From: Leucocoprinus leucothites
Taxonomy: Eukaryota; Basidiomycota; Agaricomycetes; Agaricales; Agaricaceae
DNA length: 64,000 nucleotides
NCBI GenBank assembly: GCA_013368445.1
Contig: JAACJO010000022.1
Location: forward strand, 1 to 64,000
Direction of reading: 5' to 3'
Shown here: piece by piece, positions 3,001 to 61,397 of the stretch
How the letters are laid out: every line of letters begins with the position of its first letter
Numbering within the stretch: position 1 is the stretch's first letter
Notes under the pieces: generated by a model
What the model was told of the DNA's origin: nothing
Database searches by the model: none
What the model saw: the letters and a program-made list of their open reading frames with translations, nothing else
Position numbers and translations under genes: made by a program

Positions 3001-4139
3001 CCAGTTGTCGCAGGCATGTTGGAGCACTTTTGCTGCGTGCTTTGCAAAGTCAGGTAAATAGCGCTCCATGTCGATGAAAGAGCCCGCATGTTTGTGACAC
3101 AAGTCATCTGGCCAGAGGTTGGAATCGACTTGCAGCCGGTGTGAATCCCCGGTCACATGTGCCCTCGCCTTTTTGAGGGGAATGCCACCGCTGTCTGTGC
3201 ACCGTGGGCAGGTAATGAGGATCGCATCCTCTTCTTGATGCTTCAACCAGCTCGGGTGATATGTTCGAAGGCCGATATGATGGAGAGCATCAATTATTGC
3301 TCTGACCTCAGGGTCTTTTGGGTCCAGAGAATGCGAAACTGAGTCTGTCACAAAAGACCGTTTTGGAACATGTGCAGCCGCGTTTGGTTCCCTGACATGA
3401 TACAGTCAGAGGGAAGCTGTTGGGGGGAGGAGGAGGAGGTAACGAATTTTAGCTCACTGGTTGGCTACGAAACTTCCTCCTGGTTTTCTCCTGTTACGCT
3501 GAGGCCGTACATAAGGCCGGGATATTTCCGTCCTCTCTTCTCCTTCCTGCTCTGCTATTGGCGTTCCATCATGGATTTCTCCTTCCAGAATGTTGTTTCC
3601 TGCTGAAAATCCATCATCCCCTCCCAAATTAACGCTCTTTCCCAGATTACTGCTCGTTCCCAAATCATCGCTCTCTCCCAACTTATTGCTCACCCCAGCT
3701 TCATTGAGGGACTGCCCAGCGCCTTTGTCTTCATCAGGCATTTCCTCATTGGCCACAGTGGGTGTTTCTTCGTGTGGGTCACTCAACTTGTGGTAAACGA
3801 TGTGATAATATCTATTTTTCGCTGCTTTCTCACAGACTCGACCCGACTCTTTAGTGCCAGGCGTTCTTGTGACATGGTGCCTCAAGGAGCTCAATCCCAT
3901 TGGGGCTTTTCCGCAGTGGAAGGGGCATGGCCAGCGTCCCTCTGCGTTCCTGTGAGAGTACCCTATGGAAGTCTTTTGTATCTGGGCTAGAGCATGGCTT
4001 CAGGAGGTGTTTGGTCAGTGTTTTCAGTAAGCTCACCATCAGTGAACCGGCCCATATAGACCTGGATGTACCGATGAACTTTCAGAATATGAGTTTTCAT
4101 GTCCGTAACGGAAACACCACACTCTGAGCATGGAGCCAT
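1..4139 (-). CDS. Copy A: zinc finger-OrsD-tyrosine recombinase protein, cut by the left edge
   Basis: Multi-exon gene read right to left. The ATG at 4139 opens a C2H2 finger (CSEC, then H-x4-H), followed near 3930-3850 by a second finger (CPFHC...LRHH) ending in a TPGTK motif. An OrsD-like region (about 3350-2660) has CPRC and CSFC zinc pairs. A strongly acidic linker (about 2580-2280) follows, then a segment with DPLECYLA. The last exon is open from about 1020 to base 1 and carries a tyrosine-recombinase domain: box I Arg in CRASE (about 865), Lys in RLKTE, RIHRQ, and GHSAKT with Tyr about 10 residues later (about 360-390). By analogy with copies B and D a RecQ helicase should follow beyond the left edge. 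The frame changes near 2990 between the HACDNW and VPFIPY segments with no obvious intron, so this copy may be broken. Intermediate exon limits are not resolved. Confidence 0.7.
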
Positions 4140-5933
4140 GATGATGATGAATAGGCAAGGTGGCACGATTTGCATACTTGAACTTGATTGATCCGTGCCA
4201 GGGTTTGTAGAAGCGCCTTACGGTAGGATTGATCCATGCTAGGTTTGTATTCACGACAGTGTAAAAGAAAGAAAACTCTGTTATAAATCAAAGGATGGGG
4301 GATACGAGGGGATACAAGCGGATTCTGAAAGCTCTCAAACACCTCTACGCATTCCACCACCCACCTAAACCGGATACGACACCCACTGCGCGCCACCCCC
4401 CTCTGCACCAGGCTCTTTTACTTAGCACTTCTCTTAGCCAACATCCTCTTTTTAGACTCTTGTTTATTGCATTGATATATTTATTAGTTTTGATTCTTTA
4501 TAAAATAATATTTGTTTAGCTAATGCTAACCCATTCTATGGACCACTAAAGATACACATCCCAACTCTTACAGAGGAAGATATGTATTTTTTGATAGGGC
4601 AATGACATATCTTGTCATCTTATATATGATAAACAAAAAGTTTTTTGTAACATGAATGGTGATCTAAATATATATAGTATAGTATTTTAGATGTCAAAAG
4701 TACTCTCGAGAGGAGTGTACTAGTATATACACCAGACTCATTGATATAGAACTTGATCAGTTATATTATAATGGACACTCTATACTGTTGCTTGTCATCT
4801 AGTAATATATATTTACAAAACAGCTTATTTATATTACTAAAATTGCCAAATTTTCAATTTCATGAGTTTTTGTACTCTATAAACATAATATACCTCCTCA
4901 TCATCATTTATAGATTGTGTGAAAGAGTACAGATATATTCAGTAAAGGTCACAAAAGCTTGTGAGATCTTAACTCTAATAATATATACTTGTAATTCGTG
5001 ACTTAAGTATACAGTATTGTTCGAACTTGTGTTGAATATCAGCCAACCTATATCTAGCTCATATATATTCAATGCCTATTAGGTAATTGAAGCCATAACT
5101 ACGTGGAAATTGGCAACAGGACAACATAGCTGTCAGGTACATAACTACCATTGGTAGAAGAGGTAATGAGTGGTATACAAATTTCGTTAGACCCCCTTGA
5201 TCATGTACTTTTTAGCTTGATCTGAATGCACCATAGTCGAGTTTGCCAATATATCCCAAAATGGAAAAAGTACCCGACAGATAAGTACATACCTAATACA
5301 GGAAATGAGTATTCAACAGTCGAGATCCAGGTCCAATTGAACTTACGTGCTCTAACAATCCTCTGCCGTGCCACTTTATTGTCATTCTTTCACTTGGGTG
5401 CAGGGCTACAACCCTCACTGCTCTTCATATTCACCACCAATTGAACGATCGCATGAATATAACCTCGCCGAGAATGGCATACCCAACATGGTGTGTACCA
5501 CAGTACCAATTTTGGACTGGTAGCACGGTTTTTTGGTGCCAAGTCAATAAATGCTGTCAACTGACTCCTTGAATGGCATGCGTTTGACACTAAAATGCTC
5601 GTCAGACACCAATGGCAATTGGAAAACCCCTGGTGTTTGATAATATCATTCAACGGCGGCCTCGTTAGTTGTAATGGACTTCAACTTGGTGCGATCGATG
5701 ACTTACCGAAAATTTTGACCACCTTTTGAGGACGCAACTATACTACATGACCCGCCGGGAAGCAATTTTTCGGGGAGGATGTAAACAGAAATGGCATGGT
5801 TTAGCGTTCGCGTATTGAATTTCTTGTGTCAATATATATGCTTGGTTCGAGGAGACGACCGCTAACACGATTCCTACATCGTATTGCTACTTTGCTTCAT
5901 CGTAATACTCGCGTACTCGACACCTAGCACCTC
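4140..5933. other. AT-rich intergenic region between divergent copies A and B
   Basis: About 1.8 kb separates the two divergent start codons. From about 4480 to 5100 it is markedly AT-rich, with many TATATA runs and no plausible reading frame. From 5200 to 5900 composition returns towards normal. The short open frames here lack recognisable motifs. It must hold the promoters of both copies, but I cannot point to defined sites. Confidence 0.5.
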
Positions 5934-8900
5934 ATGGTCGTCTATTTTACTTGCCCCCATTGCAATAAGCTCTGTCAGGCCGCGACTCTATCTAGTCGCG
6001 AGTCTCATGTCGCCGGTTGCAAAACCCGTTACTATGTCTTTGATGGCGTCCACATCAAGATCCCTCGGTCCGGCGACGACTTCGTCTGCAAGTGCACCTT
6101 GTACGGCTGTAGGGGCTTGTACAGGTCCTTCAAGTCCATCAAGGCCCACGCTGAGACACCCGGTACCAAGTGGGATAAGAAGAGAGATATCCCTGGCTAC
6201 AACAATGACGACGACGGTAATGACGAGGATGATAGGGACACTGTAAGTATTTCCATCAGTGATTTCCACCCTCTTGCTCACGACTGGTATAGGTCATCAT
6301 ACCGGATAGTCAAGATACCCAGACAAAGTTGGCGTTCGTTCCAGTCAACCCCGAAATCGGACCTAAGGAAGTTATGGTAAGCCATAATACGATACTTGAG
6401 CTTAGACCACTTATATTTTGCCATACACAGAAACAAGCTGCCGACGATAAGGACAAGGAAGAGAAGGAGAAGCAGGAGGGAATGAAAAGCGTGAGTGTCC
6501 GACCCCGATTCATGATCAACGAGCTCACCTTTGTTTCAGATTGGAAGTGGGAAGGACGGAGATGGGAAGGAGAGGACAGGCGGGGGTTCGAAGGTGTTGA
6601 GCGCGGTCAAGCAGCTCGAAGGCAAGCCTGCAAGAGTACAGGCTGATGTCGTAAGTTCTTTGTATCAAGAGGAACGTTGGACTGTCACTGACTGTTGACG
6701 TGAAGAATAATATAGCTGCTGGAGATTTGAAGGCCGTCGGCAAAGGGTCCAAGGTATAGAAGTCTTACTTACACTTTAATGATGGTTTATGGCCTGACGC
6801 GCAACTAATAGAATACGGTCCAAAAAGTCGCGAAGGTTGCACTGAAGGTTGTCCGACCTGAAACCAGCGTCGTTGGCAGGGATGTCGAGACCAATAGAGC
6901 TGTGAAGATGGTGAGTCATGGGCATACACTTAGTATTGTGCAGGCTCTCACTGTAGGCTTAGGCGGGAGGAGACCACGTCTCATCCAAGGAACTCATTAC
7001 CGGAGATGATTTAGTTGAACACGCCGACCTCCAGCCCCTCTGCCTTTACTTCCAATCTACACATAAGCTCCTCGCTTGTTCCTCCTGCTGGGTCCTTCTC
7101 ACTCCCTCTATCGCTCTCGACCACGTGAAGATGCATCTCCCGGGGAACAAGGCACCCGTCAGCCAGAAGACGTTCGATCGAATATGCTCTCGGCTTGACG
7201 CTGTCTCCAGCTATCCGGATTTTGCTGAGAATGAGGCAGTCGCCGCCATTTCCGGCCTCGAGCTGTACAAGGAGGCTCTCATGTGCGATGCTGGTGGCTG
7301 TCGATCCATCTATGCTACTGCAAGCTCCATGCGCAAACATCATAAGGAAAAGCACGCAAAATCCGGTGTCCCAAAGGCGTGGAAGGTCGTGCCCGCTCAA
7401 CATTTGAATAACAACACCCATCGTTCCTATTTTCGTGTTACTCCACCTTCAACCTCTAATACCGACCCTCAAGACAAGTGGGGGTTTATTAAGAGGCTTG
7501 AAGACACCATTGCTTCAATCGTCCGGCCGGCTCAACTCTACAATGCTGACCCTCGAAACGTGTCCGCGTGGCTCAAACATACGAAATGGCATTTACATGC
7601 CAAGGGCTTTGACACCGACCTCCTGATCTCCCTCGTCATGGCGCCGGAGGACAACGAATTTCCTCAGCTGAAGAGATCCGTCAAGTTCATCGTTGATATC
7701 GCGATGATATGTGTTGACATGACTCCGAACTATATTCTGCGTCGGATGAACACAAAAGATGCGCGATCGTGAGTATCTATATTTTCAGGACAAGGAAAAA
7801 GGTACTAACGGGTTTCTGTTCTTAGTGCCGTTTCGCATGAGCCCTTCCAGCAGCTCCAGACAGAAGCAGCTCTCAAGGACTACACCAGGGTGCTGACATG
7901 TTTCGTCGCATTCCTCGTTAGAGACAAGGGCAGATATGACCTCCCTCTCCCCAACGACATCAACACTTTGGTCCAGAATATCCGAAACGGGAACCCAACA
8001 GATGTTGAACCCCCTTCAACGCCCGACTCCAACTTTGATCCCCACACGATGAATATATTCGAGCTCCTTTTTGCCGTTTGGACTCGCGCTTGGGTGCCAC
8101 ATCAAGACAACAATATCGGGGACCCCACCATGTGTTTTGTCGCTCTTTCTTCTATTCGCCCGAGTGGTGAATGGGCTCATCCCGAATTCGTCACACCGAT
8201 TATAGCCAAGCTCTTCTTCTGCATCCGTTGCGTCTTCCTCTTCCATATCAACGTGGGTTCGGGAGGAAATGCAGACGTCATGCGTGGACGCTATCGGGAT
8301 ATTGAGACGTGGCTTTACGAAGGCGAAGAGTCCACGTACAATGATTTGGCGAGCCTCCAGCATTATGCGTCGGCCATGGTCTACTCCTCCGTTAAACCCC
8401 CTTCCTTCATCTGGCTCAACGACGAGAAGACACAGTTCATATGGAGAGGGAACAAAGTGAAGGTGTCGGGTATCACGGATATGGCTATGGAGATAAAGCG
8501 AAGGATGTACAAGCAATGGAAGGAGAAGGTGTTATGCGGGTTGGATATTGAGATTCGCTACGACCACATCGCCGATGATCTAGAAAGCACCGATACCCAC
8601 TATGGCTTCGTCGACGATGCTCGCAATAAGAACATATGCGAACCCAATCTCCTCATGAAGAGGATCCTCGGCGATCCAGAGTTGTCGAGTGAGTTCGTTG
8701 CCGGCTGGCGCGACAACGGGGATCCGATTTGGAGGACTGGCAGGCTCGTTCAATGGTTATTCGACTATAGCGAATTTTTGCTTCTGTTCATGGCCAGCAT
8801 CGAAGTAACGGCCGGCTCTCCGAGTCGCGGGACAGAGCTCACTTGTCTTCTATATCGGAACACGCCCACTCGTACTCGTGGTATCTACGCCGTTGGAGGG

Positions 8901-11900
8901 TGTTTGGCTATTGTATGCCAGTACTCGAAGACTACATCCAACACCGGTAGAGACAGATGGCTGCCTCATGCGGTTGACGGTTTCGACCACGATTTTGGCG
9001 CCAATATCATGTTTTTAGCGCAACCCTTCGCCGTACTGTCCATGTCCACTGCTAAACCCAACCGCCCCGACCTCGTTGACCTCTGGTACACACAACTCTT
9101 CGTAAATTTCGACAGGAAGTTCGTCACGGACGATCTCTCGTCCATCTTGAAAAGAGTTTCACTCTCGACAATGGGAGTTGCTCTGGGCGTTCGTGACTAC
9201 CGCCAGGTATCCATTGCCGTGCGCCGAGCCCACTGCCCAACGATGGAGCAGCTTATTGGCGTCGAGGACTCCGACGCTGCGGCATTACAAGCTGGACATA
9301 CACGAGCTACCGAGGATAGGCACTACGGGATTACTACGAGCTTTTTGGCGACTCTACCAGAAGATCTGATCGAGCCATTTCTCAAGGTCAGCATCAAATG
9401 GCAGACGATGCTGAAGGTTCCTGTGGCCGGAAGGCCGATCCCATGGTCCAGATTCCCGGACCCAAGCCAGTGGCAGCCGCGAACCCCTCAAGACAACACT
9501 TCTCCGCCCCTTCCATCCAACACTCCCACTCTATCGACGGCGCCGAGAGAAGAAGCTAGGGACAACGACGCGGAGAGCTCATATGTACACGTGGTGGATT
9601 TGGTGCCGATTGGGCAACGAGAGTGGGATGACGACTTGGAGGACTCATACGCGGATGTGCCACCAAAGGTATGTATGGCCCGGCCAGTCCCAGTACGTTA
9701 TCTAACCTTGCGTGCATAGGCGGATATCGTCGACAGCGGTATCAAAGAGGTCGAGTCGCCTGAGGAAATCATTGTGAGTTTTTTTCACAATGTGCCATGA
9801 GGTAGTGGAAAACTTACAGTGGATGACAGGATGTTAATGCAAAAGGTCAGGAGAACGTTGTAGATAACGTTCGCAAGGAGGATCCTAAAGGAAAGGAAAA
9901 GGTCAGTCCGTATGCTATAGTGAGGTGGATATGACTAACGAGAAGGCTCGGGCTTAGGCCGTTGCGTCATTTGAGGAGGAATTCGAGGACATGGTCGTCG
10001 ATATTGACTGTGAGCGCCCTGGTGAAGAGGTGGGTCAGCTTTTTTTTGACTTAATGGCTACCATTTACTAACCTAGTCGTCAGGACGAGGCTCCGCCTTC
10101 AGGAACGCCAGAAGAGCTATACAGGACTTCACATAAGGTACATACTACACAACTCTACGAAGACAAGGATTCATTTGACTGGTTATTATAGTTAATGTCT
10201 CCGAGAGAGCAGCAGGCCCTCTCGCATCTGAGGAGCTTCCTGGGAGACTCCTCGGCCAATTGGGCGTCCCCAGAGCAGAGGCGTGCAACTCTTGCCGCCA
10301 TATCTCGTGAAAGAGATGTCATTGTTGCGCTCCCCACTGGGGCGGGGAAGTCCGCTGTCCCGATCGTGGCCGCATCTGTTAGGCACAAACGTCTCGCCAT
10401 CGTCTCGCCGTTTGTTGCTCTTATGTATGACTGGAAACGCAAGCTTCTGGATGGAGGGTTTCGCGTTGCAGTGTATGAACGATATGCGACCCGATTCCCG
10501 GAGGACTGTGACTTCTTGTTGGCGACGATAGACCTCGCTGTGACTGAGGAGTTCGCAACGACAATCGCCAATGCCATGCGGGCGGAGCTGATGGATCAAC
10601 TTGTCATCGACGAAATACAGGAGGTGTTCATTGCCAAGCGCTATCGTGATTGTATGACCAAGATATGGGCCCTTCGCACGCAGCCATTCCAGGTCATTGC
10701 ATTGTCCGGAACCCTCCCTGCTTCCATGGAGACTCGCCTCGTCGACGAACTTCACATGACGCGTGACTCCGCGATTATTCGGGCCTCTTCCAACCGCCCT
10801 GAGCTCCAGTACCGTCTCGAGCCGAGGGAAACTAACGAGCTCAAACTCCTTGATCGCCTCGATCAAATACTACATGAAGAGACTATTGGAATGGGGCCCT
10901 CTGACCGCGGGTTGATTTTCGTGCGATCCAACGCTCAAGGCAGGAAGCTGGCTGAAAGATATGGCTGTAAATTCTATTCCGCTAGCAACGGTGCTACTGC
11001 GAAGGAACGGGAGACAATGGTGTATGATTGGAGACTGGGCCTGAACGGGCTCATGGTCTGCACGTCGGCATTCGGGGCGGGTAACGACTACCCGTCTGTT
11101 CGATTCGTGATATTGTACGGGACACCGTTTGAAATGGCGCCAACTCTCCAAGAGACGGGGAGAGCTGGTCGTGACCGCAACCCTGCTCGCTGTTACATCA
11201 TCCCTTCCGATAAACGACGCCCAAAGAAGGACCTTTCCGATCCCGAGGACGTGAGGGGTTGCACGGCGATATATGAAACTATATTCGAAACCGAGGATTG
11301 CCTTCGCCTCTGCTTCACCCGCTACGTCGACGGGGAGAAGGGGGTCGAATGTAAATCCAGTGCCCTCAACCAGACGTGTAGTCGTTGTGGAGACGAGGGT
11401 ATAACTCCCCTCCGCGTACGCCAACCAAAGCCAGTAACCCTGCCTCCTCAAGATCCGACGGGATCCAGACCCAACGCCGCCCGAGTGTCCTCTTCGAACG
11501 TCGGTGCTTCCTCGAACTCTGCCAATAATCGCCCTCCCACCAACGCTCCCACTTGGGGTAAAAAGGTCGCTGCTCCTAAACAGGTAGGGCAGCTTCACCG
11601 CTTGTCCGACCTTCCTCTTCCTGTTCCACCAGGTTTACAACCCTTCAATGTCAATGAATTCCGTTTACGAGGTCCAGCTGCTGGAAATGTCTTAGTTCCC
11701 AACTCGTCACAGACAATCTCGGAGTACGCACCTTCAGTGGGATCTCAGGTCTCTACCTGGAGCTCCGGCACTAGTAGTCGAGGTCTCAAACGACAGAACA
11801 GCGAGGCTGACGATGTTTTCGCGGAACGCGCAAAGCAGGTGAAGCGGAAGAAGGCCGCGTTAGACCTGGCTGAGGAGGAGTACATCGCACAGCTCAAGCG

Positions 11901-12357
11901 AGCCATCCACCACCTCGAGGGGAAGTGCACGGTTTGTATGGTGATGGAGGAGAAGCGCAAGGAGAGTTATGGCCACCAAACTTGCTACTGCCCAAGTTTA
12001 AGCTTCAGGTCGTACTTGAGCTGGAAGAAACACGTACGATACGATACCCCGATCCACGGATACATATGCGCTTGCTGCCATGTTCCCCAAATCGACCCCG
12101 AGCTCCACCTGTTCATCTCTCAAGGGAGCAGCGCATACGCAGAATGTCCTTATCCTGACAGCACCCTACCCCTTGTCTACTCCATCTACGTTCACGAGCC
12201 GACTCGACGACGCGCGCAGGAGTACTTCCAGGTCGTGTGGAGCAACCAGACGAGCTACGCAGAGTGGCTTTGTGACCACGACGTCAGGCCCAGCTACACC
12301 AACACTATGGCCGTCTTCCTCTGGTTTATCGAACATTGCTGGACCCGTCGCCATTAA
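5934..12357 (+). CDS. Copy B: zinc finger-OrsD-tyrosine recombinase-RecQ helicase fusion protein, apparently intact
   Basis: About 1,930 residues from roughly a dozen exons; the junctions examined have GT-AG sites and keep frame. The ATG at 5934 opens a Cys/His finger (CPHC) and a second one with the TPGTK motif. Lysine-rich short exons (6293-6900) lead to an OrsD-like region (exon about 6963-7769) with CSSC and a C2H2 finger. Exon 7827-9668 holds the recombinase: box I Arg in SRGTE (8826), Lys (8928), RDYRQ (about 9192-9206), GHT (9294) and Tyr (9324). Four tiny phase-0 exons (9721-10138) form an acidic linker. The last exon, from 10195, is a RecQ-type helicase: Walker A ALPTGAGKS (about 10328), DEIQ in place of DEAH (about 10609), SGTLP motif III, and ETGRAGRD motif VI. 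A coiled, basic segment and a Cys/His C-terminus (CTVC...CACCHVPQ) end it. Such a protein could cut, rejoin and unwind DNA in the nucleus. The domain calls are firm; the function is inferred. Confidence 0.85.
7827..9668 (+). other. Tyrosine-recombinase exon of copy B
   Basis: One exon of about 614 residues carries the recombinase part of copy B. The conserved series is Arg (SRGTE), Lys (YSKTT), R-x-x-R-Q, G-H-[ST] and Tyr, in the order and rough spacing of the YR fold: box I Arg, beta-hairpin Lys, H/K-x-x-R, H/W, Tyr nucleophile. The first residue of the classical HxxR box is Arg here. The exon joins the helicase linker at 9668/9721 in phase 0. Confidence 0.75.
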
Positions 12358-13949
12358 TTCGTCACCATTCTACATGTTCTTCTCGCCGGTAACTGCCTCC
12401 CTGACCTAGATATCGAGATTTAGCGTGCTCGCCACTATCTGTCGTATCGAGTCACGCACTCTATTATCTGTTCTAGTATACGTTTGTCCTTTGTACATTC
12501 CCCAAACCCCTCAACTTGGCACTAATCGATGATTAATTCGTGCGTCTTCTCGAAATATCGCTAATGTGTTGAGATTGTCAGGCGTCCGATTGCCGTTTAA
12601 ATTCTGAATAACATACCGGCTTAACTCGATAGAATCCCCTACGTTCGTTGTTGCTGAGACTTCCACCCTCGGTAGCGTGCTTGAAGAGCGTTGACGCCGC
12701 ACAGGCACAAGACCGTCATTTTTCACATTGAATATTTGGGCTGGTGATTCAGGAACGAGCTTGTGGATCAGAGATTCGACATACGGCGTGATAGTTTTGC
12801 ATGGACGCGTCAAAACCCTGTGTGCTATGTGTCGTCAATATATCTCGGTGGTTATGCTGCTAGAAAATGGCTATTGGTCGACTACATGTTAAGACTATCT
12901 AATCTATCTAAAAAAAACACCTCCAACGTCGTCTTTGCCGATTGATACTTGATGGGTACATTGCTATATAAACGCAGTCAGTGGAACCGCCAACGCAGAA
13001 ATATAGTAAAACACTTACACATATATGGCGGATAGTCGAGGTAGGGAGGAAAGGTGTTTTGATGGCGTTGTCGGGTACTTGTTTGCGAAGAGTTCGGTGT
13101 CTGAACTTTTAAATCTCCGACTTACGGGCTGACGGCCGAGCTGCATCGGCGATCGCGATCAATCGTCATCAGCACGTGTACTACTCACGTGGCACTGGTG
13201 TTCCAGTCCCGTCGTGCTTCTTCGGATTGGCGGTGGACGGATCATTCTTCGCGATCCGATCAAGATTTCTCGGCTGGCACCGAACTTTTTGGAATAAAAG
13301 AGGTGCCAGCGCTTACTAACAACTCTTTCTCCTCCCGTCAACATCGCTGTAGCTAATATCGATAGAATCCTTAGTAAACTTACTACAATGTAATTTGTGC
13401 TTCAAATACAAGGAATAACGTCTAATACTGACATCGCACCCCGTTTCTAGGCCACAGGCCTCTCCAAACCGTAGAGACAACCAAGGGTAGGCGCTCCCAG
13501 TATTGATTGGCGTCCAGTTCACTTACTTGTCACCAGAACAGCGGTATTTGTCTACGATCGTCTTCAAGTTGACGCTTTACATTTTGAATCGCAGGATTTC
13601 GGTCAAGGGGTGCACCTTCAGGTAGTTAGAGCGTCGCTTTAGAAGAGCTCTGCTGATAATATCGCGTGGACCAGGCCCAGGGCTCGACCTCGTCGTCCAA
13701 TGCAGGGCGGGCTGCGATCGAGAACATCTCTTCCGTTTATGTTCCGTCAATTGTGAGTCTCGAAACTATCCTCCTCCGCAATTCCTAATCCGATTGTTCG
13801 AGAGGATGAAACTAGGGTAAACTACACCACTACGACCGCCTTGCTGTTCAACTGACTGAGACGAATTATATCTCACCTCGTCAATCGCCTTAGGCAAAGC
13901 ATGTACGTAGCATGATTTCGTAGTGGCTACTCTAACCAATGAAATCTAG
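12358..13949. other. Intergenic region between copy B and the Spt5-like gene
   Basis: No convincing gene. Several 60-100 residue frames on both strands lack motifs and do not fit together as exons. From about 13680 onward there are splice-like signals, and a possible short first exon starting at an ATG near 13700 could be the 5' end of the next gene. Confidence 0.4.
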
Positions 13950-16900
13950 ATCGCATTCGCCGAGAACGCTGGTTGGGAAGTGAGTTATATGTTCAACCTG
14001 CGCGCATTCGATTCTAATCCGCTCATAGAGGGGTGTGGCTTTGGACGCTGATGGTTCGCTGAAACGCGCGGAAGAAATTGAATGGCAGTATGACCCAGAT
14101 GAACCTGTGAGTCCGTCGTTACCGAAAGTTGCGGGGACGCAGCTTAAAGTATTGTTATTTTCAGGAGCCTTCTCTCTCCGTATGTTAAGGCAGGCAACAT
14201 CACTGCCCGAGTTACTCACTTGTGCTGCTGCGTAGGTCCGGCAACTTCAACCATATGCGTCAACAAGGAAACAAAAACGTCGCGATGAGGTGCGACGGAG
14301 AATCATGACTTAGCAGCAATAAAGCTTATGGTCTTCACAGGACGAAGAGTCTGCCAAACGACGAAAGGTATGTCTTCAAAAGGCTGTACTATGTCTCGAG
14401 TTCATATTCAACCTAAAACAGGTAGACGTTATGGCCTTCCTTGACATAGAGGCTGAAGTCGATGACGATGAAGAGGAGGAGGAGGAGGGAGAAGAATATG
14501 GTACGTATATTTTCATAGTGTCTCTCTCAGCGTATATTCCTTACTGTTGTTCAGATACATTCATTGACGATTGTGAAGAAGAAGATGAGCGGCCACCACA
14601 CGCACTTCATAATCAACTGAGGCGAGCAGACGAAGAGCTTCAGAACGCTGGTCTCCAGCATCGCGATCACAGACAAACGCGCGGACAGGAAGAGCTCGAA
14701 GAAGACGCGGAGGAGGGAGGAGCTGGTGTTCAGTCGGAGGAGGAGTGGTCTCAGAGTCAATCGGAGACAGAGAGACTTCAATCCGAACGGGAGAAGAGCA
14801 AGACGTGGAGAGCGAGAACCCCTCACGGGACTAGAACCTATACGGTGACACGCACGAAAGACGGCCTCGGTGTATATAAAAAGAACTGGCAAAACGATTT
14901 TACGTTCCATGACGGTGATACCATACTTTGGGAGGTTAGAGCCAGGGTATGTTTTCTTTTCTGCCGTTTGCTACTACATCTCATAATTTTTACCAGTCTC
15001 CTCACCAGAAGAAAGCACTGGATACTATGATCCATCGTTGCTTCTTCTACTGGCCTGATTCGAGATACCCCGTCCCTCGGAGCATCATCTGGGAACCTCG
15101 TTTTCGGGATCGGATCTATATCGAGACAGACATGATTGAATCGGCCAGAGCGGTCTGTAGGGATGTGGTTTTTTTGAAGCATTCTCGCCACCCCAAGCCG
15201 ATCCCAGTTGATAAGGAGGACGCTTATTATATTATTACCAATCGGATTCTGCGAGAAACGTTGCCCGTCACTGGTTCCTGGATTCGATTTGCTCGCGGGA
15301 GGTACAAGGGCGATCTCGCATACGTATTCGACATAAACGATGATTTCCGCCTCACTGTCGTCATGGTTCCAAGATACGATTACTTGGATTCCTTCAGGCG
15401 TTATCAAAAGAAGCAGTTAGAAGAGGAGCGCAAGAGGAGGCAGGAAGAAGCTGATGCTCGTGAGGACGTCACGAACGTAGAGATTCAACCTGGTGAAGAA
15501 CCTCCATCGTCTACCCCCTCCGTTACAAGAGCAGTGTCTCCGACGGCTCCTAATGAAGAACCACCTCGACCTCCAACTCCGACCACTCCTCAACGAGAGG
15601 ATCATAAGCCAAAACCCCCTCATCGACTTCCTCAGGCCATTTTCAACCCAGGAAAAGTTCATCCTGAGGCTTTTGAAGAGATCCCGGACAACGAGCGACT
15701 TGGCCCGGTGAAATGGCGCTTTGAAGGAATGGAACTCGACGAATCCGGGTTCAGCATAGTGGGAGATATAACCCCGCCGATGTATCGTAAGGGCTTAACT
15801 TCACCCTCACTGGAAGAGCTAGCGCAGTTCAGCGCATGCTCGTCCGTTCCGAGAGAGGTTGTACGCAATGCTCTCCGGCGTTTGGAGATCGCTTCGCTCA
15901 AACCAGGCCTCAAAGTAAAAGTGAACAATATGGGCATGACGGACTATTTTGGACTCGTAGCGTATGTTAGAGATGATGTTGCTGGTGTGCGCCTACCGGG
16001 TGGTACTGAGAAAGTATATCAAACGGAGGTAAAATACGTTTACCGCTGGTTTGAAATTGGGGACCGTGTCAAGGTTGTAGCTGGTGATTTCAACGGACTT
16101 GTGGCATGGGTCGTCGCCATCGACGCTGAAGCGAGGACTGCAGTTGTTCATGATCACGTTCAGGATGTAAGTTGTTTATCAGATATTCATCGCAGTTACT
16201 GATTTTCGTGATAAGATTCAAGCATCTATTTCCTTTCATTTTTTATCATCCGCGCCCGACGATCGTACTTTTTTGGAGGCGCCGTCTACGTCGAACGATA
16301 AAGGGAAGGAGAGATTGAATGTTCCAGAAGGACCAGAGGTAGATATCCCGGCCCAGATGAATTTGCCGGTTGAGAAGTTGTTCCATTTACTTGATGGCAC
16401 GGAAATCGTGGTGGCTGAGGGGGAATTCATCGGGATGTCGGGCAAGGTATTAGAAATCGACGACGTGGGCATTGCACTCGTTAGCTTGTCCAAGTTGCAT
16501 AGTTCGAGTGAGATGCGTCAACAATTGCCCGTCACAAGCATGCTGTATCGTCTGTGAGTACTTAGTCTTACTTTTCTCACCGGACTCACACTTTTGGCAG
16601 GAATTCGACCGGTTCGTTCTTTCGACTCGACAATACCTTCGTTCTCCACCCCACAGCAACGCCGACGCCGACGATCGTCTTCCAGAAACTCAAGGGAATG
16701 GACGTGTTCGTTGTCAAAGGAGAATTTAAGAGTCGTTGGGGAACAGTGCATGATATCAGTGAACGTGGTATTGCCCTTGTAAGCTTTCCTGGAAGCCATG
16801 TTTCTAGTGGAAAATTGCAAGAAGTGCGAGTAGAACACATGCTTTATCGTCGGTGAGTCATAGAATCGTCGTCTCATTTCCTTGACTCAATCCATATCTC

Positions 16901-17668
16901 AGCGATCCTGGCGGTGCATTCTATGAGTTGGACAAGAACAACGATCTGCAGCCAGCGCCGCACGCGGACAAGTTGATACTACACGGATTTCGCGATCTCA
17001 AGTCCGGTCCGCATCCTGAGGATCCGGACTATCAATATGATCCATCACCCTGGAGAACGAATTTCTCTAATTTTATCGACAGGCTCGATGCTAGGACTCA
17101 GCCTCAAGCAACGTCACCCTGGGAAGTAGGGGGAGGTGCTATAGTCCCGGAGGAAAGAGAGCTCCGTGAGCATTTTTCGAACTTCACAGAACCCTTCACG
17201 CTACTGATAATCTCATCAGCCCCGGGTCATTTTCTGAAGATGCTACAGGAGAGGACGATGAAAGATAAGCCCGAGAGTAAAGTTATGTTTAAAGTTCGCG
17301 AAGACTCGCCTAACTTTAGCTTATACGCTGGAACGGAGGGATATTTCGTCAAAATGGAAGACACGGCAGTTGTGCTAAAGGTAACCCAACAGCGTGGAAC
17401 TAATACTGTTAGTGTAGACGAGGTCCAAGTGTCTTATCAAGGCATTCTACCATTACCCCCGGCCAAGAAGGGTGACCTTGCTGTTGTTTGTGACACGACG
17501 GCGCCGTCAGCTGTAGGACGCATATGTTGGGTGTTTGAATTTGGCGTTGAGAAGTGCGTTCTTTGCCCCAGTAGTCGTGCAAAATCCATTAGGACAACCG
17601 TGGAGACTTGGCTCCTGGCTCGTGTCCTCCCTACCCCGCGCCGTCGCTGTGAGTTCAATGTTCTATGA
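13950..17668 (+). CDS. Spt5-like (NGN/KOW) transcription elongation factor paralogue
   Basis: Multi-exon gene. Small 5' exons (13950-14370) give a basic stretch resembling a nuclear localisation signal (RKQKRR...AKRRK). They lead into an acidic N-terminus (about 14440-14600) typical of Spt5, FLDIEAEVDD followed by a Glu run. A Gln/Glu-rich coil precedes an NGN-like domain (LWEVRAR; RIYIETD...ESARAV). A clear first KOW unit follows (about 15280-15390): GSWIRFARGRYKGDLAYV then VPRYDY. A Pro/Thr-rich linker and at least three more KOW-like units (about 15900-16160, 16370-16550, 16680-16850) precede a less conserved C-terminus. Canonical Spt5 binds RNA polymerase II with Spt4. This one lacks an obvious heptad-like CTR and has divergent KOWs, so it is probably a specialised paralogue. 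It lies between two recombinase-helicase genes, in the same orientation as copy B. The 5' end is not settled; an in-frame ATG lies at 14431. Confidence 0.7.
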
Positions 17669-18067
17669 TGCAATATATTATCTGACAGTACAACAGAATA
17701 CCTCTTTGTCGCCTTCTTGTCGTTGCACTGGAACTTGAACTTGGACTCTTGCACCCCATGTGATCCCCACCCGTGTTTAACTTGCTCGTCCTTTGCCTCC
17801 TGCGTGGTCTTTATCTTTTTTCGGCTATTTTCGTTGAGTATTCATTATGTCAGTATTCATTATATATAATATTTGCGTGGATATTCTAGCATTTAACGAG
17901 CGAAAATCATGAACGAGCATTGAGTTTCTAACTATACACCCAGGCAGGGTTCCCCACAATGATTTATTGACCCTACCAAGAATATATAGTAGAAAGGAGA
18001 AGCTTGTTATGCTTCCTTGAGTGTAATACACCTTCTTGCAACAGCTTTCTGTCTGATCGGGAAGTTT
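17669..18067. other. Short intergenic region
   Basis: The 3' flank of the Spt5-like gene. No gene or RNA is seen. The sequence becomes AT-rich near 17840-17880 and leads into the 83-bp repeat array. Confidence 0.4.
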
Positions 18068-18316
18068 CGGCGCCATAACAAGAAGTTTCTCGTGTTCTAT
18101 TGACTTCAAAGTGATTTCCCGCGGGAAATTCACATCCACACAGAAAGACTCGGCATCAAAACGGGAAGTTTCTCGTGCTTTATTGACCCCAAAGTGACTT
18201 CCTGCGGGAAATTCAAGTCCACACAGGATGACTCGGCATCAAAACAGGAAGTTTCTCGTGCTTTATTGACTTCAATACAACTTCTCGCGGGAGATTTCCT
18301 GCCCAACACGGGAAAT
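18068..18316. repeat. 83-bp tandem repeat, three copies
   Basis: Units begin at 18068, 18151 and 18234, an exact 83-bp spacing. Each starts CGGC(GCC/ATC)A, contains GAAGTTTCTCGTG then TATTGAC, and ends with a short inverted motif around TTCC(C/T)GCGGGAAAT. The first two units are very similar and the third diverges towards its end. Further GGGAAAT and CTTCCTG palindromic pieces continue to about 18460. The array lies directly beyond the truncated end of fragment C. Confidence 0.9.
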
Positions 18317-18547
18317 CATGGCGCTAAATTCGCCGATTTTGAATCAAAACATAAAACATTAGTTCTAAAAAAGGCAATTTTTCGAAAAGTTGTTTAGTGC
18401 CTAACTTGTGATACTTCCTGCCCCAGGAAGTAGCCTATTTTGGCGCCGGGACTTCCTGTGGGAGGACAAGGGTGCTCAGCAAAAATATAGTCTTAGTGTA
18501 TTTATTAATTTTTATTACGCATATAGTCAAGTTTTACACTAGCTTAC

Positions 18548-18835
18548 CGCAAACGATTGGGCGTTGTCATATTTTTTTGGGCAGCGGATGCAGTTGAACA
18601 CGCCAGTGGCGTCCCGATTGATGACGAGTGTGAGGCTGGCATTGGGTTCGCCGTGGACGGGGTAGTTTGCCTCTTGCTGTTGGCGGGTGCAGGTGCGCTG
18701 ATGGGTACGGCGGGCATTGTCGGGGAGCAAAGCCATATCTGTATTGCAGATGGGGCAGTGCTTGCTAAGCGAGGGGATTAGATTGTTGTCGTCTAGGAGT
18801 CATGCTCAGGGTACTTACACTTTATCGGAGGGCAT
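18548..18835 (-). pseudogene. Fragment C: orphan 5' exons of a fourth recombinase-helicase family member
   Basis: The ATG at 18835 (MPSDK) is followed by a short intron with GTAAGT donor. The next exon has a Cys/His cluster: CPIC, then THQRTC, then CIRCPKKY. The same pattern (CTVC, AHSACTR, SCPRCQLKF) begins copy D. The exon ends at a good splice donor (GTAAGC at 18547), but nothing homologous follows: within 80 bases lies AT-rich DNA, then the 83-bp repeat, then the end of the convergent Spt5-like gene. It therefore looks like a start left after deletion or insertion, or a short stand-alone zinc-finger gene. Confidence 0.6.
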
Positions 18836-19284
18836 GACTTTCTTGGTGAAGGTTTATAATAAGCGGCAGGGGTGCGAGGCAGTTGAAAATAAATGATTGA
18901 AGAGAGTGGGCAATAAGTTAAGCGTGACGAGCGTGGATGTGGTCGTAATTGGGGATGAAGATGGAAAAAAGGGGCGATGGATAAATATAAAGTCGGGGAG
19001 TTTGTGTTTATTTGTAGCCTATGTAAGCGCCTATCTACTGATGGCTCTTTGAGAGGAGCTCGGAATACAGTAGGACTACTGCTATGGCCTTGGGCAGGAC
19101 TATGGCTACTGCTGGGCTTCCAATCCAACATTCCAGAGGTTCCAGCCGATTTCCTACCATTAATCGTGAGGTCTGTACTTTCTGAAGCAACGTTTTGTTC
19201 TTCGAGATGGTGAAAAGGAGTCCAGCAACAACGTCGCTATATCTGCAATGGATTCGAGGATCCTCGAGATAATCATGAAAATAT

Positions 19285-22200
19285 TCAATCTCTCCAGCAA
19301 CATTGGCATATTTGAGCTGTTTTTTGCTTGTGAATCACACGTAACGCGCTATGAGTAATCGTGGATGAGCGCACCTTTTGCGGGATTCCGCATTGGTAAC
19401 ATACACCATTTGGATACTTGATGGCGCTCTTGAACGCCTGCCACTCCTTCATTTGTGTGTATGGTGACGGGTTGTGCTCGCAATCTCGGAATAGATGGTC
19501 TTGGTACGCTGGGGGTCTTAATAACCCACACGCGATGCAACTGTTTGAGTAGTGGTCGATTATTTGGTGTGCAGATTCGAGTTCGGCGGACTCTTCGTCT
19601 TGTAAATTTTTAGGCAGTGTAAATACGCGACTCGAGTGAGCAGCTGCAAGAAGAAGCTGGGATGAGGGCGTATTGTCTGCGCATTTGCTGTGAGCGAGTG
19701 TCGGCAAGTTGTGATCAAGTTCGTACCTTCTCGGAGGGGAGGTGATGTGGCTGCTTTTGAACAAACATCGCACATGTGAGCGGTTTTGCCCAATGCTGTA
19801 CATGTATCTGCTGAGCCGTCAAGGAACTTTTGAAGTTCTACTTGGCGACATTGACTGTCGTTTTGGAGTGATTGATGCAGGATGTGTTGGCCAAAATAGT
19901 CTGGGTTTTGGAGTGGTTCAGCTTCGATACGCAAGGGCAGCACGACGATAGAGAATGCAGGTGTACTCTGTGGTGGACGCCCGGCTCTTCCAGCTTCCTG
20001 GATGTACGAGAGTACGTTTCGGGGTAATTTTGCATGTATGACGTGGCTTACGTTTGGTACGTCTAGCCCCACACCGAGAATCGAGGTTGTTACAAGTCCT
20101 CGGTTGCTGGTGCCGCCCTGCTGATTGCGTTCGTTCTCGCGGAATTTCTGAAGGGTTACTGTGAGCTCGTCACGTCCCTTCTTGGAATGGCAACATGCCA
20201 CGTTGAGGCGCTGAGAATATCTTTCTGCCTCATTTACTGTCAAACAGAAGAGCAGGACTTTACTGCTCGGAGAGTGAGCCAGTGCCTTTTCAAATTCGTG
20301 GACTACAGCTTGATCAAAATCGCCGGACGCCCAAATGACATTGTATGAAATGTTGGGTCGGGGTGTGACGGTCCTAATGGTGAGCGAAGCCGTAATTCCA
20401 AGAGCCGACAGTAGTGATCCTTCGAGAGAGGGTGGGAGCGTTGCAGTGATGATGACCATTTGAACTGGATATCGACCGAGCCACTTTAAGAGGTGCATTA
20501 CAGGCCGGAAAGAGCCGTGCATGAGGATTAGATGGGCTTCGTCGATGATGACTCGTGCGAGGAGGTTGTTTTGCAATAGGATGGAAACAAAGAGCTTAAA
20601 GGAGTCGAAGGTTGCTTGGTCAATGGTTATGGGTATATTTGTGGGTGGGTTGGTGGCAGATGTCGAATGCGACCAGGATTTGCACGTGAGCCCGAACTTT
20701 TTAGAGCTCTCATATATCTGGTCGTGGAGAGAAATGAGCGGTAGGATCCAAATCGTCGACTTCTGGGCGTCAAAGAATTTTGCACATAGCATTCCAGGAG
20801 TCGTTTTTTCCACTCCCTGGTTCACCATGAGCGACATTTTTGTTTAAATCGACGGTGCTTACCAGTTGGAGATATGTATAGCAGGTGCCTCTTTCCTTCG
20901 TATAGGATTTGTGTGGCAAGTGCTTGTTCCTTATTCAAGAACCCTCCATGCGTCTCGATTAGCGATGGATACTGCTCGCGGAGTTTGGAGAGTATGTGCG
21001 GATGGGGAATTACATCGTGGGGTCCAACTGTTTCTTGGAAATTGGCTTTTGGTGTGATGTGCTCAATCACTGCACTCGTGGATTCGGCAAGCGCCTTGTT
21101 CACGGATCGGAGGATATCGGGAAGTAGTAGTGGCTTGAGTGCATCTGCGACATCTCGGATGGCTACTTGTGTTGAAGGATAAGATGGCGATTGAAGGGTA
21201 GGCTGGGAATGATGGCGGATCTGGGATATGGTGCCTATCACTTCAGCTATCCGCCCTTTTCCGTATTCCAGGTGTTCTAAGAGTTGCGGAGAGTGGCCGA
21301 AGAGAAGGTGAAATACTCCACTGACGCGGGCGTTTGATATGAACATGCTGGCGCTCATTCCAGGTGGGACGCGGGCGTCGTGAGTGTAGTGCTGTAGATT
21401 CATCTTTGCCGAGTGGCCAAACTGTTCGTACATAGCAGTCGAGTTAGCCTCTGCAACGGTGAATGCTTCTCTGTTGCAATCTGTGATGAAGGACATGAAT
21501 TGCCGGAATACTCGAATCCGGAGTGGGACTCCGAGTTCTTGCGTCGTATAGGCAACCAGGGCATCAGATAGATCGCGTGATGTAAGCGGGCGATGGAGGC
21601 CTGCGAATAGGTAATGTTGGGCGTTGAATGACATCGAGGGTGAGAGATATTTCTGCCATTCAAGGTAGAGAGGTCGAAGGTAAACGAGGAATCGAGTAAG
21701 CTGATGACCTATTGGTAGGTGAGGGATTCGGCATATGGGTTTATCGGTATTGTTGATACTGGTGGTTTTGCTCCAGGATGCGCGGAGGACAGGTAGGTTG
21801 AACAGGACGAAGAAGTTTCGTATGGAGCCCCCACTAACATTTGCAAGAAGGTGCGAAGCTAATTCACTGCCGCGTGCGGGTTCACCATAGCTGAGGATGA
21901 TATTACACATTATTTTCTCTTGGAGTTTAAAAATCCGCTTCATTTGTGCGGCAATCTGTGTTGGGTACCAGGAGACCTTCCCTTGGGGTGTGATGTAGGC
22001 GTAGTTGGTGAATATCTCGGGCGTTTCGAGAATATGCCGTGCAACCGTCTTTTCGTTGTTCCAAGGATTGCGTCTGTCGGCTACAAATGAGTACGCAGAC
22101 GCTCGTTCTTGTGGGTCATCGTGAATGTGAATTTCTGGTGATATGACGAATGTGGGGTCGTGGAAAGTGAGCTCGTTGATCTCTTGTTCGATTTCGTGGG

Positions 22201-24522
22201 CGGCTCGTTGATGGAGGTCACCAATTCGAGATAGGTGGAGAGTTTTGTCTTCTATTATAGCTGATGTGCCTGAGAGGTCGGGTGCATTGAAGTATAACGT
22301 CGACTCTTCGGCTGAGTCAACACCTCCAATACCACGCTTGAGGAGATATAAATAAGGCATCATAGCCTCAGACTTTTCATCAAAGTAGCGCTCGACTCGA
22401 GCAAAAGCGCTGTCGGTGAAGTTGGTAAGTTCTCATGGAGAAAAGGTTGGCTCGTATTCTCACCTTGAGTACGCCATTGAGTGCTTTTTTGTGAGTTCAA
22501 TTATCTTCCACGCGAAAACGAGTCGTCCAGCAAAGAGGAGGTGGGAAATCAGGGGAGTTATTGTATTGCCAGATGCCCAGTCGCCATTTTTCCGGAGTGA
22601 GGAGAGGATAACGAAGTGGGGTATTGGACTGATTAGCTTTCCAGGTTGTTCGTCGGTCGGCGTTTGGGTGAAAAGGAGATATAGAAGGTTGGCGAGTTTT
22701 TGTTGTATTATCGACGTTGAGAGCGGTGCTTGCGCTTGTGACAGGGATCTAGTGGATTCTTCAATGACGATCTCTTTATCACTGTCATCACTGGCATCCC
22801 GCTCGTTGTCGTCCTGCTCATCGTCCCTCTCTCCTTCACTGAGCTCTTCCACTAGTGAGCCCCTTGGCGGTAACAGGTGCCGGATGAGGTCTTTGCACGC
22901 AGCTGAGATTTGGGTGGCTATGGGGAACTTGTACAGTGCATCATCGTCGAAAGCGATCCTGTCGATGAAGACGATTAGGGCGGCAGTGGTCCTTGCATAC
23001 TTTTTCTGGGTCTTTGGGTTCACATCTGCATGATGACGAACGTGTTTCTCGTCGTGCTCTTGTGCGGGTCGAACACTTATGATTCTTCGTAGATAGTACG
23101 AGTCAATCGAGCTTTGTGTCGTAGAAAAGAATGAATGGATATGATTGCAGAGGGTACCGTACGTGACGTCGAGGGTGGAGTATTTAACTAGGGGCATGAG
23201 GTCTTCGTGTCGATGCCCTTCGATGTAATCAAGCCACCGCTCTTTCTTGAGAAACTGATGGAGGACGCGAAAATCGTCAGACTGAGCGGCAGGTTTCTCC
23301 GTCCGCGATGTTTCGTTTCGATGCTGCTCTTTAAATATCACCCATGGTGTGGTTTGCGTGGAGCGCTTGGCCGGCAGTGGTTTGACTGGAAACCATGGAC
23401 TCGAGTTATTCTGCACCCATCGCTGTGCCGGTGAAATCGTGTATTGTGGGGAGTCGGAGCTGCATGTGTGTTTTCCGAATGATTCTTTGCTTTTGTAGCA
23501 TCGGCGGCAAGATGTGCAGAGGAGGTAATCCATAACCGGTGGTCCAAGCTCTTCGATGGGATTGACAGGCTCTGTTGGACGAGGGGGGGCATCGGTGAGG
23601 CTGGGGTACTGCTCCTCGGATTCAGCTGCGATAAGATCTTGGAGGTCGAGTGGCGTGGCGAACTCTTTGTGTTGGTTGAGAAAGTGCTGTCGAATGTTCG
23701 TGGGATCGATGACGCTCCGGCACTTTAGGCATACGAGGATCCTGTGCTTGGTGTTTACGGCGAGGCCATATGTATTCAGGAGTGGCGTCTGTATGCTTTG
23801 TAACAGCTCGTCCGAAGTTTCATCTCGAAGCATCGGTTCGGGGCTGCAGGTTCGTGATGGAGGCGCCGTGCCTGGAGGTGGGGTGACGGTTTCGGGCATT
23901 GACCTCGATGGAGATGGTGGGCATTCAAGAGCTGCAGCCACAAGAGTAAGGGTGTTGGGCTGTGGGTATGGTTGCGCTGGCTCTGGTTGAGCTGTTGTTG
24001 ATCGTGGTTCGGAGGTCGTTGCCAGTGGAGCTGGCTGTCCATGACAAGTTCTTGCATGTGCCTATGTGATTGTTTTCTTGGGTTAGTGTTTTTTTTTTTT
24101 TTTTGCGGTTGACGCTCGTACTACGGTGAGATCTGTCGAGTGGAACTTGAGTTGGCAACGTGGGCATGATAACATTTGTGTCTTTTTGTCGCGTTTGATT
24201 TTCATCTTCACGCGGCCATTGTCGAGGAAGCAATGTATGAATGCTCTCGTGCATGCGCTATGAGCGGTGCCTTTTTCTCCGAGCATGGACAGCGAGCACA
24301 CTGTACACCTTTTGATGAATGACGTTCATTTGGTGTGTACTTTTGGAGCTGGGATCGGTACTTACGACGTGGTTTCGCCACTATGCTCGCGCTGTCTTTT
24401 AGCCCTGCTTTCTCTTTGTCATGGATCCGGTTGTGTTTGGGTTTTCGGTACTTACGGTTTTCCTTTTTGCGAATGGCTCCCTTGTGAATCGTTTGAGATT
24501 GTGCGTTTTGGTCTGTTGACAT
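19285..24522 (-). CDS. Copy D: zinc finger-OrsD-tyrosine recombinase-RecQ helicase fusion, one frameshift in Walker A
   Basis: The ATG at 24522 and two short basic exons lead to a Cys/His finger (CTVC...CPRCQLKF, about 24310-24130). The main N-terminal exon (about 24060-22460) is Pro/Thr-rich. It has OrsD-like zinc pairs (CLKC...HFLNQH; CTSC...CYKS...H) and an acidic Asp/Glu stretch. After an in-frame intron (about 22460-22404) comes the recombinase: box I Arg in ARGSE (about 21873), Lys in WSKTT, RVFRQ, GHSAKM and Tyr (about 21415-21380). The helicase follows across another intron: PTG at the end of one exon, SGK in the next, then DEAH, TATLPP and EAGRAGR. A final exon ends in a Cys/His region (CIAC...GVCYQCGIPQ). 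The splices checked keep frame, but Walker A has six A where five would join the two helicase frames. The frameshift may be real inactivation or a homopolymer read error. Fragment C follows in tandem. Confidence 0.8.
20804..20809 (-). other. Single-base frameshift in an A6 run at Walker A of copy D
   Basis: After splicing, the upstream frame reads PTGSGK and then leaves the helicase frame. The downstream frame reads KTTPGM and continues through DEAH and the rest of the helicase. Removing one A from the run of six would connect them as a canonical Walker A. This is read directly; whether the extra base exists in the organism is unknown. Confidence 0.7.
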
Positions 24523-27922: not shown

Positions 27923-28139
27923 GCCAATCGCAGCTGCGATGGCCGGTCCAGATTCTTAGGTAATCACGGGTTTGGGCGTGTTTGGTGCTGTATCTGGTTC
28001 AGCGGCAGTGGCGGCATGTGTGGGAGACAGTGAAGCTGGTGCTCACCAGGGTGTCGGTTGTGGGCTGGGTGTTGGCAAAATCGCCGAGTCGCGATCGCGT
28101 TGTGGACCTATGCGATCACGGGACCGGGGTGAGGGGGTT

Positions 28140-28540
28140 TGAGGGGGGCCATGGCGGTGTTGATGGCATTGGGCTCAGTGACTGGGCTGGTGGTGGCAGC
28201 GGTGGGGAGAGACGTTGCTGATGCCATGTCTCAGTGGTCTGGCGATGGCTCGGGCATTTCCGGAATGGTGATCGATGGCATCGACGATGGTGGAGTGTGG
28301 TCACGGTGGCAAGCGGCCTGTCTCACCATGGTGGGAATGGCGGATGGAGGGGATGGTGGTCGATGGTAAGAGGCAGGGAGTGGTGGGGGGCTGTGCTGTC
28401 GATGGTCATTTGATGGCATCTGCAGGCCCGGGATGTTCCAGAGATGGTCGATCAATGGCACAGAATGTTCCGGCGATGGCATCATCAGTGGTGGAATGGT
28501 CCGATGATGGTTCGGAAATTGCCGGAAATGGTGATGGGCA
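28140..28540. repeat. Second GATGGC-rich low-complexity block
   Basis: Same composition as 25640-26130, with many GATGGC, GATGGTGG and AATGGT words. It abuts the broken end of the copia fragment at about 28680, suggesting this kind of DNA accumulates or expands at insertion or deletion sites. Confidence 0.6.
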
Positions 28541-28729
28541 TTCTTTATTCATCTTTTATTCAGAAATATATTCGTTTCTCCCTCAGTTCTCGGGCGATGG
28601 ACATGTTTTTGGGGCCATTATGTAGCGTTTTTCGAGGGCTTTCCATTGATGTATATCGCACTGAGACCGCTCTGTCGGGTCGCGCAAAAAGGCATTACCA
28701 TCGGAGTAGACCCCCTACTCCGACAATGA

Positions 28730-28912
28730 CTAGGGATAGGTGGGAGGTGGGAGCGGAGGAACCATGCCAGTTGTGACAGTCCAACCTGTAAGAGGGGTTC
28801 CAGGGGTCATGATCATAGAGAGAAATCCCTGCATCCTCATGGACCAAAACTGGTAGTTCTGGGGGCCTTGAAGGACTGGGACACGAGAAGCTCCATTGTT
28901 GATAGAAGACAT
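28730..28912 (-). pseudogene. Start of a Ty1/copia gag gene
   Basis: The ATG at 28912 begins a 60-residue frame containing NYQFWSMRMQGFL, the N-terminal gag pattern (N-Y-x-x-W-x-x-R-M-x-x-x-L) of copia polyproteins. The frame then ends, and no reverse transcriptase, integrase or second LTR follows before GATGGC-rich sequence begins. It is the 5' end of a truncated element whose LTR and primer site lie to its right. Confidence 0.75.
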
Positions 28913-61395: not shown

Positions 61396-61397
61396 TA

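What the first reader, a model, noticed from the sequence alone, without database searches (positions are those of the whole stretch)
5934..24522. Family of giant proteins fusing a tyrosine recombinase to a RecQ helicase
Copy B (5934-12357) joins zinc fingers, an OrsD-like region, a YR catalytic domain and a complete RecQ-type helicase in one spliced frame; four phase-0 micro-exons link the two enzymes. Copy D (19285-24522, opposite strand) has the same order. Copy A (1-4139) has the same start through the YR domain and leaves the window before its helicase. Fungal telomere-linked RecQ helicases, YR-based Cryptons and Starship captains are known separately; I know of no named element with this fusion. 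Inference: a self-mobile or subtelomere-maintaining element whose protein both recombines and unwinds DNA.
Basis: partly seen in the sequence, partly recalled or inferred. Interest (0 to 1): 0.88.

Follow-up and report, generated by a model that had tools for sequence, protein, structure and literature searches.

The report
Chromosome-end helicases fused to DNA recombinases
In a mushroom genome, helicase genes that crowd chromosome ends also carry a complete site-specific DNA recombinase, and a sister of that recombinase heads a 21.6-kb element that looks able to jump, so these 'telomere helicases' may themselves be mobile elements or descend from them.

Summary
The fusion is real. Copy B splices into one 1,925-aa frame (13 exons): zinc fingers/OrsD, tyrosine recombinase (YR), four phase-0 micro-exons, RecQ-like helicase. 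The YR model's 21 best structural matches are all YRs or topoisomerase IB; the five catalytic residues are kept in 33-34 of 34 aligned rows. Of 18 proteins found with the YR part alone, 15 carry a helicase, one an uninterrupted metagenome ORF. The genome is Leucocoprinus leucothites (100% match). Agaricus bisporus homologues are probably its published subtelomeric RecQ helicases, reported to have no other domain. Of three telomere-bearing contig ends read, two begin inside D-type genes. Corrections: copy D has lost its Walker A motif; copy A carries no helicase. Copy A is instead the left end of a 21.6-kb element: three copies share the left end, two the right; its YR gene comes first. Best reading: Agaricomycete telomere-linked helicases are YR-RecQ chimeras from a mobile-element YR clade. 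That the B/D recombinase itself moves DNA is inferred. TLHs of fission yeast, Ustilago and Magnaporthe could not be tested.

The parts
5934..12357 (+). Copy B: YR-RecQ fusion gene, 13 exons, 1,925 aa
   Evidence: splice model without internal stop; identical residues in NCBI model P0001
5934..6242 (+). Copy B exon 1: Cys/His-rich zinc-finger-like N-terminus
   Evidence: sequence; no Pfam hit
6963..7768 (+). Copy B exon 7: OrsD-like C2H2 region
   Evidence: Pfam OrsD E 2.2e-5, below its cut-off
7826..9668 (+). Copy B exon 8: tyrosine recombinase (core-binding and catalytic parts); R at 8826-8828, K 8928-8930, R 9201-9203, H 9297-9299, Y 9324-9326
   Evidence: model and structural matches; conserved residues R340, K374, R465, H497, Y506 of the ORF 7809-9719
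9720..10137 (+). Four phase-0 linker micro-exons (9720-9773, 9830-9901, 9958-10029, 10084-10137)
10192..12357 (+). Copy B last exon: RecQ-like SF2 helicase and Cys-rich C-terminus
   Evidence: Pfam DEAD 42.4 bits, Helicase_C 48.4 bits; RecQ matches
19285..24522 (-).
22464..24061 (-). Copy D exon with OrsD/C2H2 (Pfam OrsD 32.5 bits)
20863..22409 (-). Copy D YR exon
   Evidence: catalytic set in P0020
19560..20843 (-). Copy D helicase frame, Walker A motif lost at its start
1..4425 (-). Copy A: left end of a 21.6-kb mobile-element-like unit, cut by the contig end; its YR gene reads inward from about 4139
   Evidence: same left end at C11:1674499 and C21:198153-198154, unrelated flanks; exact 17-mer at three places
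2..1375 (-). Copy A YR catalytic region (R171, K204, R298, H329, Y338 of this ORF)
14323..17668 (+). KOW/Spt5-like gene next to copy B (approximate bounds from ORFs); possible companion, not shown to be part of the same unit
   Evidence: Pfam KOW2_Spt5 in P0001; close relatives only at C22 right end and C100

Best explanation
Copies B and D belong to the multi-copy telomere-linked RecQ helicases (TLHs) of Agaricomycetes, and full-length members are one polypeptide: zinc fingers/OrsD, a catalytically complete tyrosine recombinase, then a RecQ-like helicase. SHOWN: the fused frame in B, the YR fold and catalytic set, recurrence of the fusion in other species, chromosome-end position, and that a sister YR (copy A) is the first gene of a 21.6-kb unit that shares a precise left end at three unrelated sites. 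INFERRED: zinc fingers bind a subtelomeric target; the YR cuts and rejoins DNA there through a phosphotyrosine link, moving or exchanging the chromosome-end segment that carries its gene; the helicase opens or migrates the junction so the segment can be copied. They would be subtelomeric mobile elements, or recent descendants of them, rather than plain host helicases. Odds for the steps: one fused protein 0.93; YR fold with intact active site 0.93; same family as published subtelomeric RecQ helicases 0.85; the YR still moves or exchanges the segment 0.5.
Against: No RNA or protein evidence. No defined ends for a B or D unit. Mobility is seen only for the helicase-less A type, its right end rests on two copies, and the C21 insertion lacks the other half of the interrupted gene, so no clean target duplication was read. 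Foldseek alone was not significant, the His-Tyr stretch has pLDDT under 50 in both models, and no Pfam YR family hits. Two of five dN/dS pairs were saturated. 13 of 39 homologues show no helicase Pfam domain.
Confidence: 0.55

Rival explanations
1. Passive subtelomeric passenger: the fused gene multiplies because homologous recombination and break-induced copying swap chromosome ends; its YR is not what moves it today.
For: C10 and C68 share more than 18 kb at 99.3-99.7% identity, far beyond the gene; window 27959-28742 recurs at 96% near the right telomere of C22; telomeres start inside D-type genes, as end breakage and healing would give.
Against: Catalytic residues are kept in 33-34 of 34 rows and YR exons look constrained; a sister YR heads a unit with exact shared ends.
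Confidence: 0.25
2. Host-maintained chromosome-end enzyme: an old mobile-element YR was joined to a helicase and now serves telomere or subtelomere upkeep, without mobility of its own.
For: Fusion kept across several genera; constraint on both parts. In Ustilago, TLH genes are upregulated in telomerase-negative strains (PMC10532341, passages).
Against: Copy number and decay look like an element, not a host gene: copy D without Walker A, 5'-truncated C51 and C21 copies. In Agaricus bisporus the subtelomeric RecQ genes are missing from var. bisporus without telomere abnormality (PMC7473861, passages).
Confidence: 0.17
3. Gene-model artefact: two neighbouring genes read as one.
For: No RNA evidence here; the NCBI model P0001 does over-run into the KOW gene.
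Against: Consensus phase-0 junctions; fusion repeated in other species; P0019 spans both domains in one frame.
Confidence: 0.03

Closest known systems
Subtelomeric / telomere-linked RecQ helicases (TLH; Agaricus bisporus var. burnettii, Ustilago UTASa, Magnaporthe and Fusarium TLH)
   Same: RecQ-like helicase, many copies, chromosome ends; the A. bisporus homologues P0029, P0031, P0032 carry names of the strain in PMC7473861 (passages)
   Different: That paper reports no domain besides the helicase core; here a complete YR and OrsD region precede it. TLHs of other fungi were not compared
Starship elements (DUF3435 captain YR)
   Same: Element A: YR gene first at one end, reading inward, 21.6 kb with other genes (definition from PMC12134995, passages)
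   Different: No DUF3435 Pfam hit; flanking direct repeats not established; the B/D captain-like protein carries a helicase. Starships have been reported in a basidiomycete (PMC13066641, passages)
Cryptons
   Same: Eukaryotic YR element; some CryptonS encode an extra C48 peptidase protein (PMC3212892, passages)
   Different: No GCR1_C hit; larger unit; the listing shows 0 occurrences of 'helicase' in that paper

Membership tests
Tyrosine recombinase | R-K-R-H-Y catalytic residues | tested here: met
   34, 34, 33, 33, 33 of 34 rows
Tyrosine recombinase | YR fold | tested here: met
   leading structural matches of both models are YRs or type IB topoisomerases; active-site helix poorly modelled
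Tyrosine recombinase | Tyrosine-dependent DNA cleavage and strand exchange | not testable with these tools
   needs a biochemical test
Telomere-linked RecQ helicase | RecQ-like SF2 helicase core | tested here: met
   (copy D lacks Walker A)
Telomere-linked RecQ helicase | Many copies near chromosome ends | tested here: met
   11 of 16 listed copies within 25 kb of a contig end, at most 11.7% of the genome expected (contigs break at repeats, C58/C68 probably one locus); telomere junctions at C19 and C22
Telomere-linked RecQ helicase | Homology to TLHs of S. pombe, Ustilago, Magnaporthe | not tested
Starship | DUF3435 captain | tested here: not met
   no such Pfam hit for copies A, B or D (one search shows 25 of 26 families); a remote relation is not excluded
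Starship | YR is first gene at one element end, reading inward | tested here: met
   element A only; no ends known for B or D
Starship | Flanking direct repeats | tested here: inconclusive
   only CTA precedes the left end in all three copies; right flank of C21 not the other half of its target
Crypton | GCR1_C domain (fungal CryptonF) | tested here: not met
   no such Pfam hit, nor listed
Crypton | 4-6-bp terminal direct repeats | tested here: inconclusive
   TCGCTA at both junctions on C11, but only CTA shared on C21

The most novel reading that the evidence does not exclude
Telomere-linked RecQ helicases across fungi, including S. pombe Tlh1/Tlh2, are YR-RecQ 'captain helicases': one protein that breaks and rejoins subtelomeric DNA at specific sites and unwinds it. 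They would be selfish chromosome-end elements whose recombination supplies, or imitates, telomerase-independent end maintenance, with the 32-bp palindromic arrays as candidate recombination sites.
Probability: 0.3. Interest if true: 0.92.

Novelty: new variant of a known kind. Interest (0 to 1): 0.78.

Why it matters
Telomere-linked helicases have been described since 1998 (Ustilago work cited in PMC10532341) without a settled function, and a telomere-to-telomere study of Agaricus bisporus saw only a helicase core in them. If they are recombinase-helicase fusions from a mobile-element clade, their copy number, variety-specific presence and telomere junctions get a testable cause: changing one tyrosine would separate mobile from maintenance models.

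Tried and rejected
Rejected: copy A as YR-RecQ. A second frame break in copy D near 19.7 kb: dropped, because the NCBI model reads it as an ordinary intron. A ubiquitin-protease identity for copy A's tail: a motif likeness only (recalled), no Pfam or PDB hit. B-type element ends: C10/C68 and C51/C100 each give a single breakpoint; C58 and C68 are 100% identical over 4,662 bases and collinear past the C10 breakpoint, so probably one locus assembled twice. The C51 copy is 5'-truncated near C51:8501. Foldseek alone gave no significant PDB match for the B model (92 matches at E <= 10, none at E <= 0.001); the YR signal came from VIA-align on Foldseek's candidates. The first dN/dS attempt read the wrong strand and was redone, where two of five YR pairs were saturated and gave no ratio. 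Pfam named no YR family for any YR part. The search could not see YR proteins shorter than about 940 aa (length filter), so 15 of 18 leans towards long proteins. Seven of the 39 proteins (P0001, P0008, P0011, P0021, P0030, P0036, P0039) were left out of the residue count. Of three telomeric ends read, C11 showed no D-type gene in its last 568 bases. The search for RecQ-YR papers found none describing the fusion.
Full report
What was checked. The window is the first 64 kb of contig C22 (561,123 bases) of a 47.0-Mb genome in 110 contigs. Proteins 100% identical to copies B and D are filed under Leucocoprinus leucothites, an agaric. The right end of C22 carries TTAGGG repeats. No reverse-oriented telomere motif was found anywhere in the assembly, so the left end, where the window begins, shows none.

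Copy B is one gene. Its 13 exons give 1,925 aa without an internal stop; the 12 introns are GT-AG and 49-58 nt. Between YR and helicase lie four phase-0 exons of 54, 72, 72 and 54 nt. The NCBI model P0001 has the same residues but continues into a KOW/Spt5-like gene. The fusion recurs. A search with B residues 800-1925 gave 4 proteins, all with helicase domains. A search with the YR region of P0003 alone gave 18, of which 15 have helicase Pfam domains, from Leucocoprinus, Leucoagaricus, Pisolithus, Suillus and a metagenome. A search with copy D gave 20, of which 10 have them, including Agaricus bisporus and Coprinellus. In all, 26 of 39 distinct proteins. P0019, from a 4,352-base metagenome contig, is a 1,318-aa reading frame holding YR and helicase, which makes a gene-prediction error unlikely.

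Copy D has the same order, but its helicase frame has lost Walker A. The C19 copy shows a GSGKTTPGM reading at that place. Helicase matches lie beside 7 of 7 B-like and 3 of 5 D-like YR copies.

Copy A is something else, and the most informative. It matches C11 at 99.5% and C21 at 99.3% over its main stretch. All three copies begin at the same base, (C)TAAGTAAAAGAGCC, with unrelated flanks. The 17-base start occurs exactly three times in the genome; three other places have two mismatches, and the reversed control gave 10 and 9 at up to two mismatches. C11 and C21 stay 99.8% identical for 21.6 kb and then part sharply. The YR gene starts about 290 bases inside the left end and reads inward. On C11 it continues into a C-terminal part without helicase or Pfam hit. 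The unit also holds a weak TET/JBP-like dioxygenase match (E 0.006, below cut-off). On C21 the left end lies inside a B-like TLH gene, of which C10 shows the uninterrupted form; the other half is not found on C21, so no clean target duplication could be read. The right end rests on two copies.

Chromosome ends. Of 16 listed copies, 11 lie within 25 kb of a contig end and 13 within 50 kb; at most 11.7% of the genome lies within 25 kb of one. Contigs break at repeats, C58/C68 are probably one locus, copy A on C22 is cut by the contig end, and C21 holds three copies far from its ends, so this is support and not proof. Firmer: I read three telomere-bearing ends. On C19 the repeats begin at 748,289, inside the 3' part of a D-type gene. 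On C22 they begin at 561,011, where the frame ends CTRPFAHVQ as in the N-terminal part of P0030, a D-type protein (my comparison). In both, the gene points at the telomere. C11's last 568 bases show no such gene, but its A element ends 16 kb from that telomere.

Against the literature. PMC7473861 (passages) describes 19 subtelomeric RecQ helicase models unique to A. bisporus var. burnettii, with no domain other than the helicase core in these or in those of other fungi. Homologues P0029, P0031 and P0032 bear Agabi119p4 names, matching that study's strain H119p4; that they are the same genes is likely but was not checked. All three have the YR set. Ten paper searches listed no paper that I could see describing this fusion; the library lacks most subscription papers, and only passages of the papers cited were read. 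PMC10799480 (passages) says helicase domains predominate in fungal host-TE fusions.

How it may work. Shown: one polypeptide, YR fold and residues, recurrence, chromosome-end position, and a unit headed by a sister YR. Inferred: the YR makes a phosphotyrosine-linked break at a subtelomeric site found by the zinc fingers, and the helicase opens or migrates the junction so the segment can be copied or exchanged. A 32-base-period array of palindromes (AATGTCC-N4-GGACATT; 26 exact sites on C4, C10, C22, C43 and C51, against 2 in the control at up to one mismatch, where the pattern itself gave 42) lies near copies on C10 and C51, 24 kb from the telomere of C4 and 9 kb from that of C22; C43 was not judged. 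It may be a recombination-site array or just a subtelomeric satellite; nothing here tests that.

Verdict. New is that Agaricomycete telomere-linked helicases carry a complete recombinase whose sister heads a mobile-element-like unit. By the features tested it is a new variant of known kinds and not a member of Starships or Cryptons.

Noticed in passing
L037:771-1334 (C10), C51:18047-18256, C4:2834007-2834120, C22:552199-552327, C43:14221-14270: Tandem array of 32-base units, each with a palindrome AATGTCC-N4-GGACATT; 26 exact sites on five contigs. Could be recombinase sites or a subtelomeric satellite.
   Followed up: partly
window 14323-17668: KOW/Spt5-like gene beside copy B; its close relatives (44-59%) lie only at the right end of C22 and on C100 beside a TLH copy, and the L. 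birnbaumii model P0010 also runs TLH and KOW together. PMC7473861 lists an RNA polymerase II elongation factor among burnettii-only genes.
   Followed up: partly
window 18062-18310: 83-base tandem repeat, three copies, between the KOW gene and copy D.
   Followed up: no
window 59803-60019 and 61181-61397: 217-base inverted repeat, 98% complementary, 1,161 bases apart: looks like a small terminal-inverted-repeat transposon; 61395-61907 is 76% similar to part of element A.
   Followed up: no
window 27959-28742: Recurs inverted at 96% about 1.5-2.3 kb from the right telomere of C22 (C22:558712-559494).
   Followed up: no
G000:C2:3107124-3107237: TTAGGG array about 40 kb inside the contig end; and in the whole assembly all 198 hits of the telomere motif are in one orientation.
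   Followed up: no
L043:8314-8703 (C11, inside element A): Weak TET/JBP dioxygenase-like reading frame (E 0.006, below cut-off).
   Followed up: no
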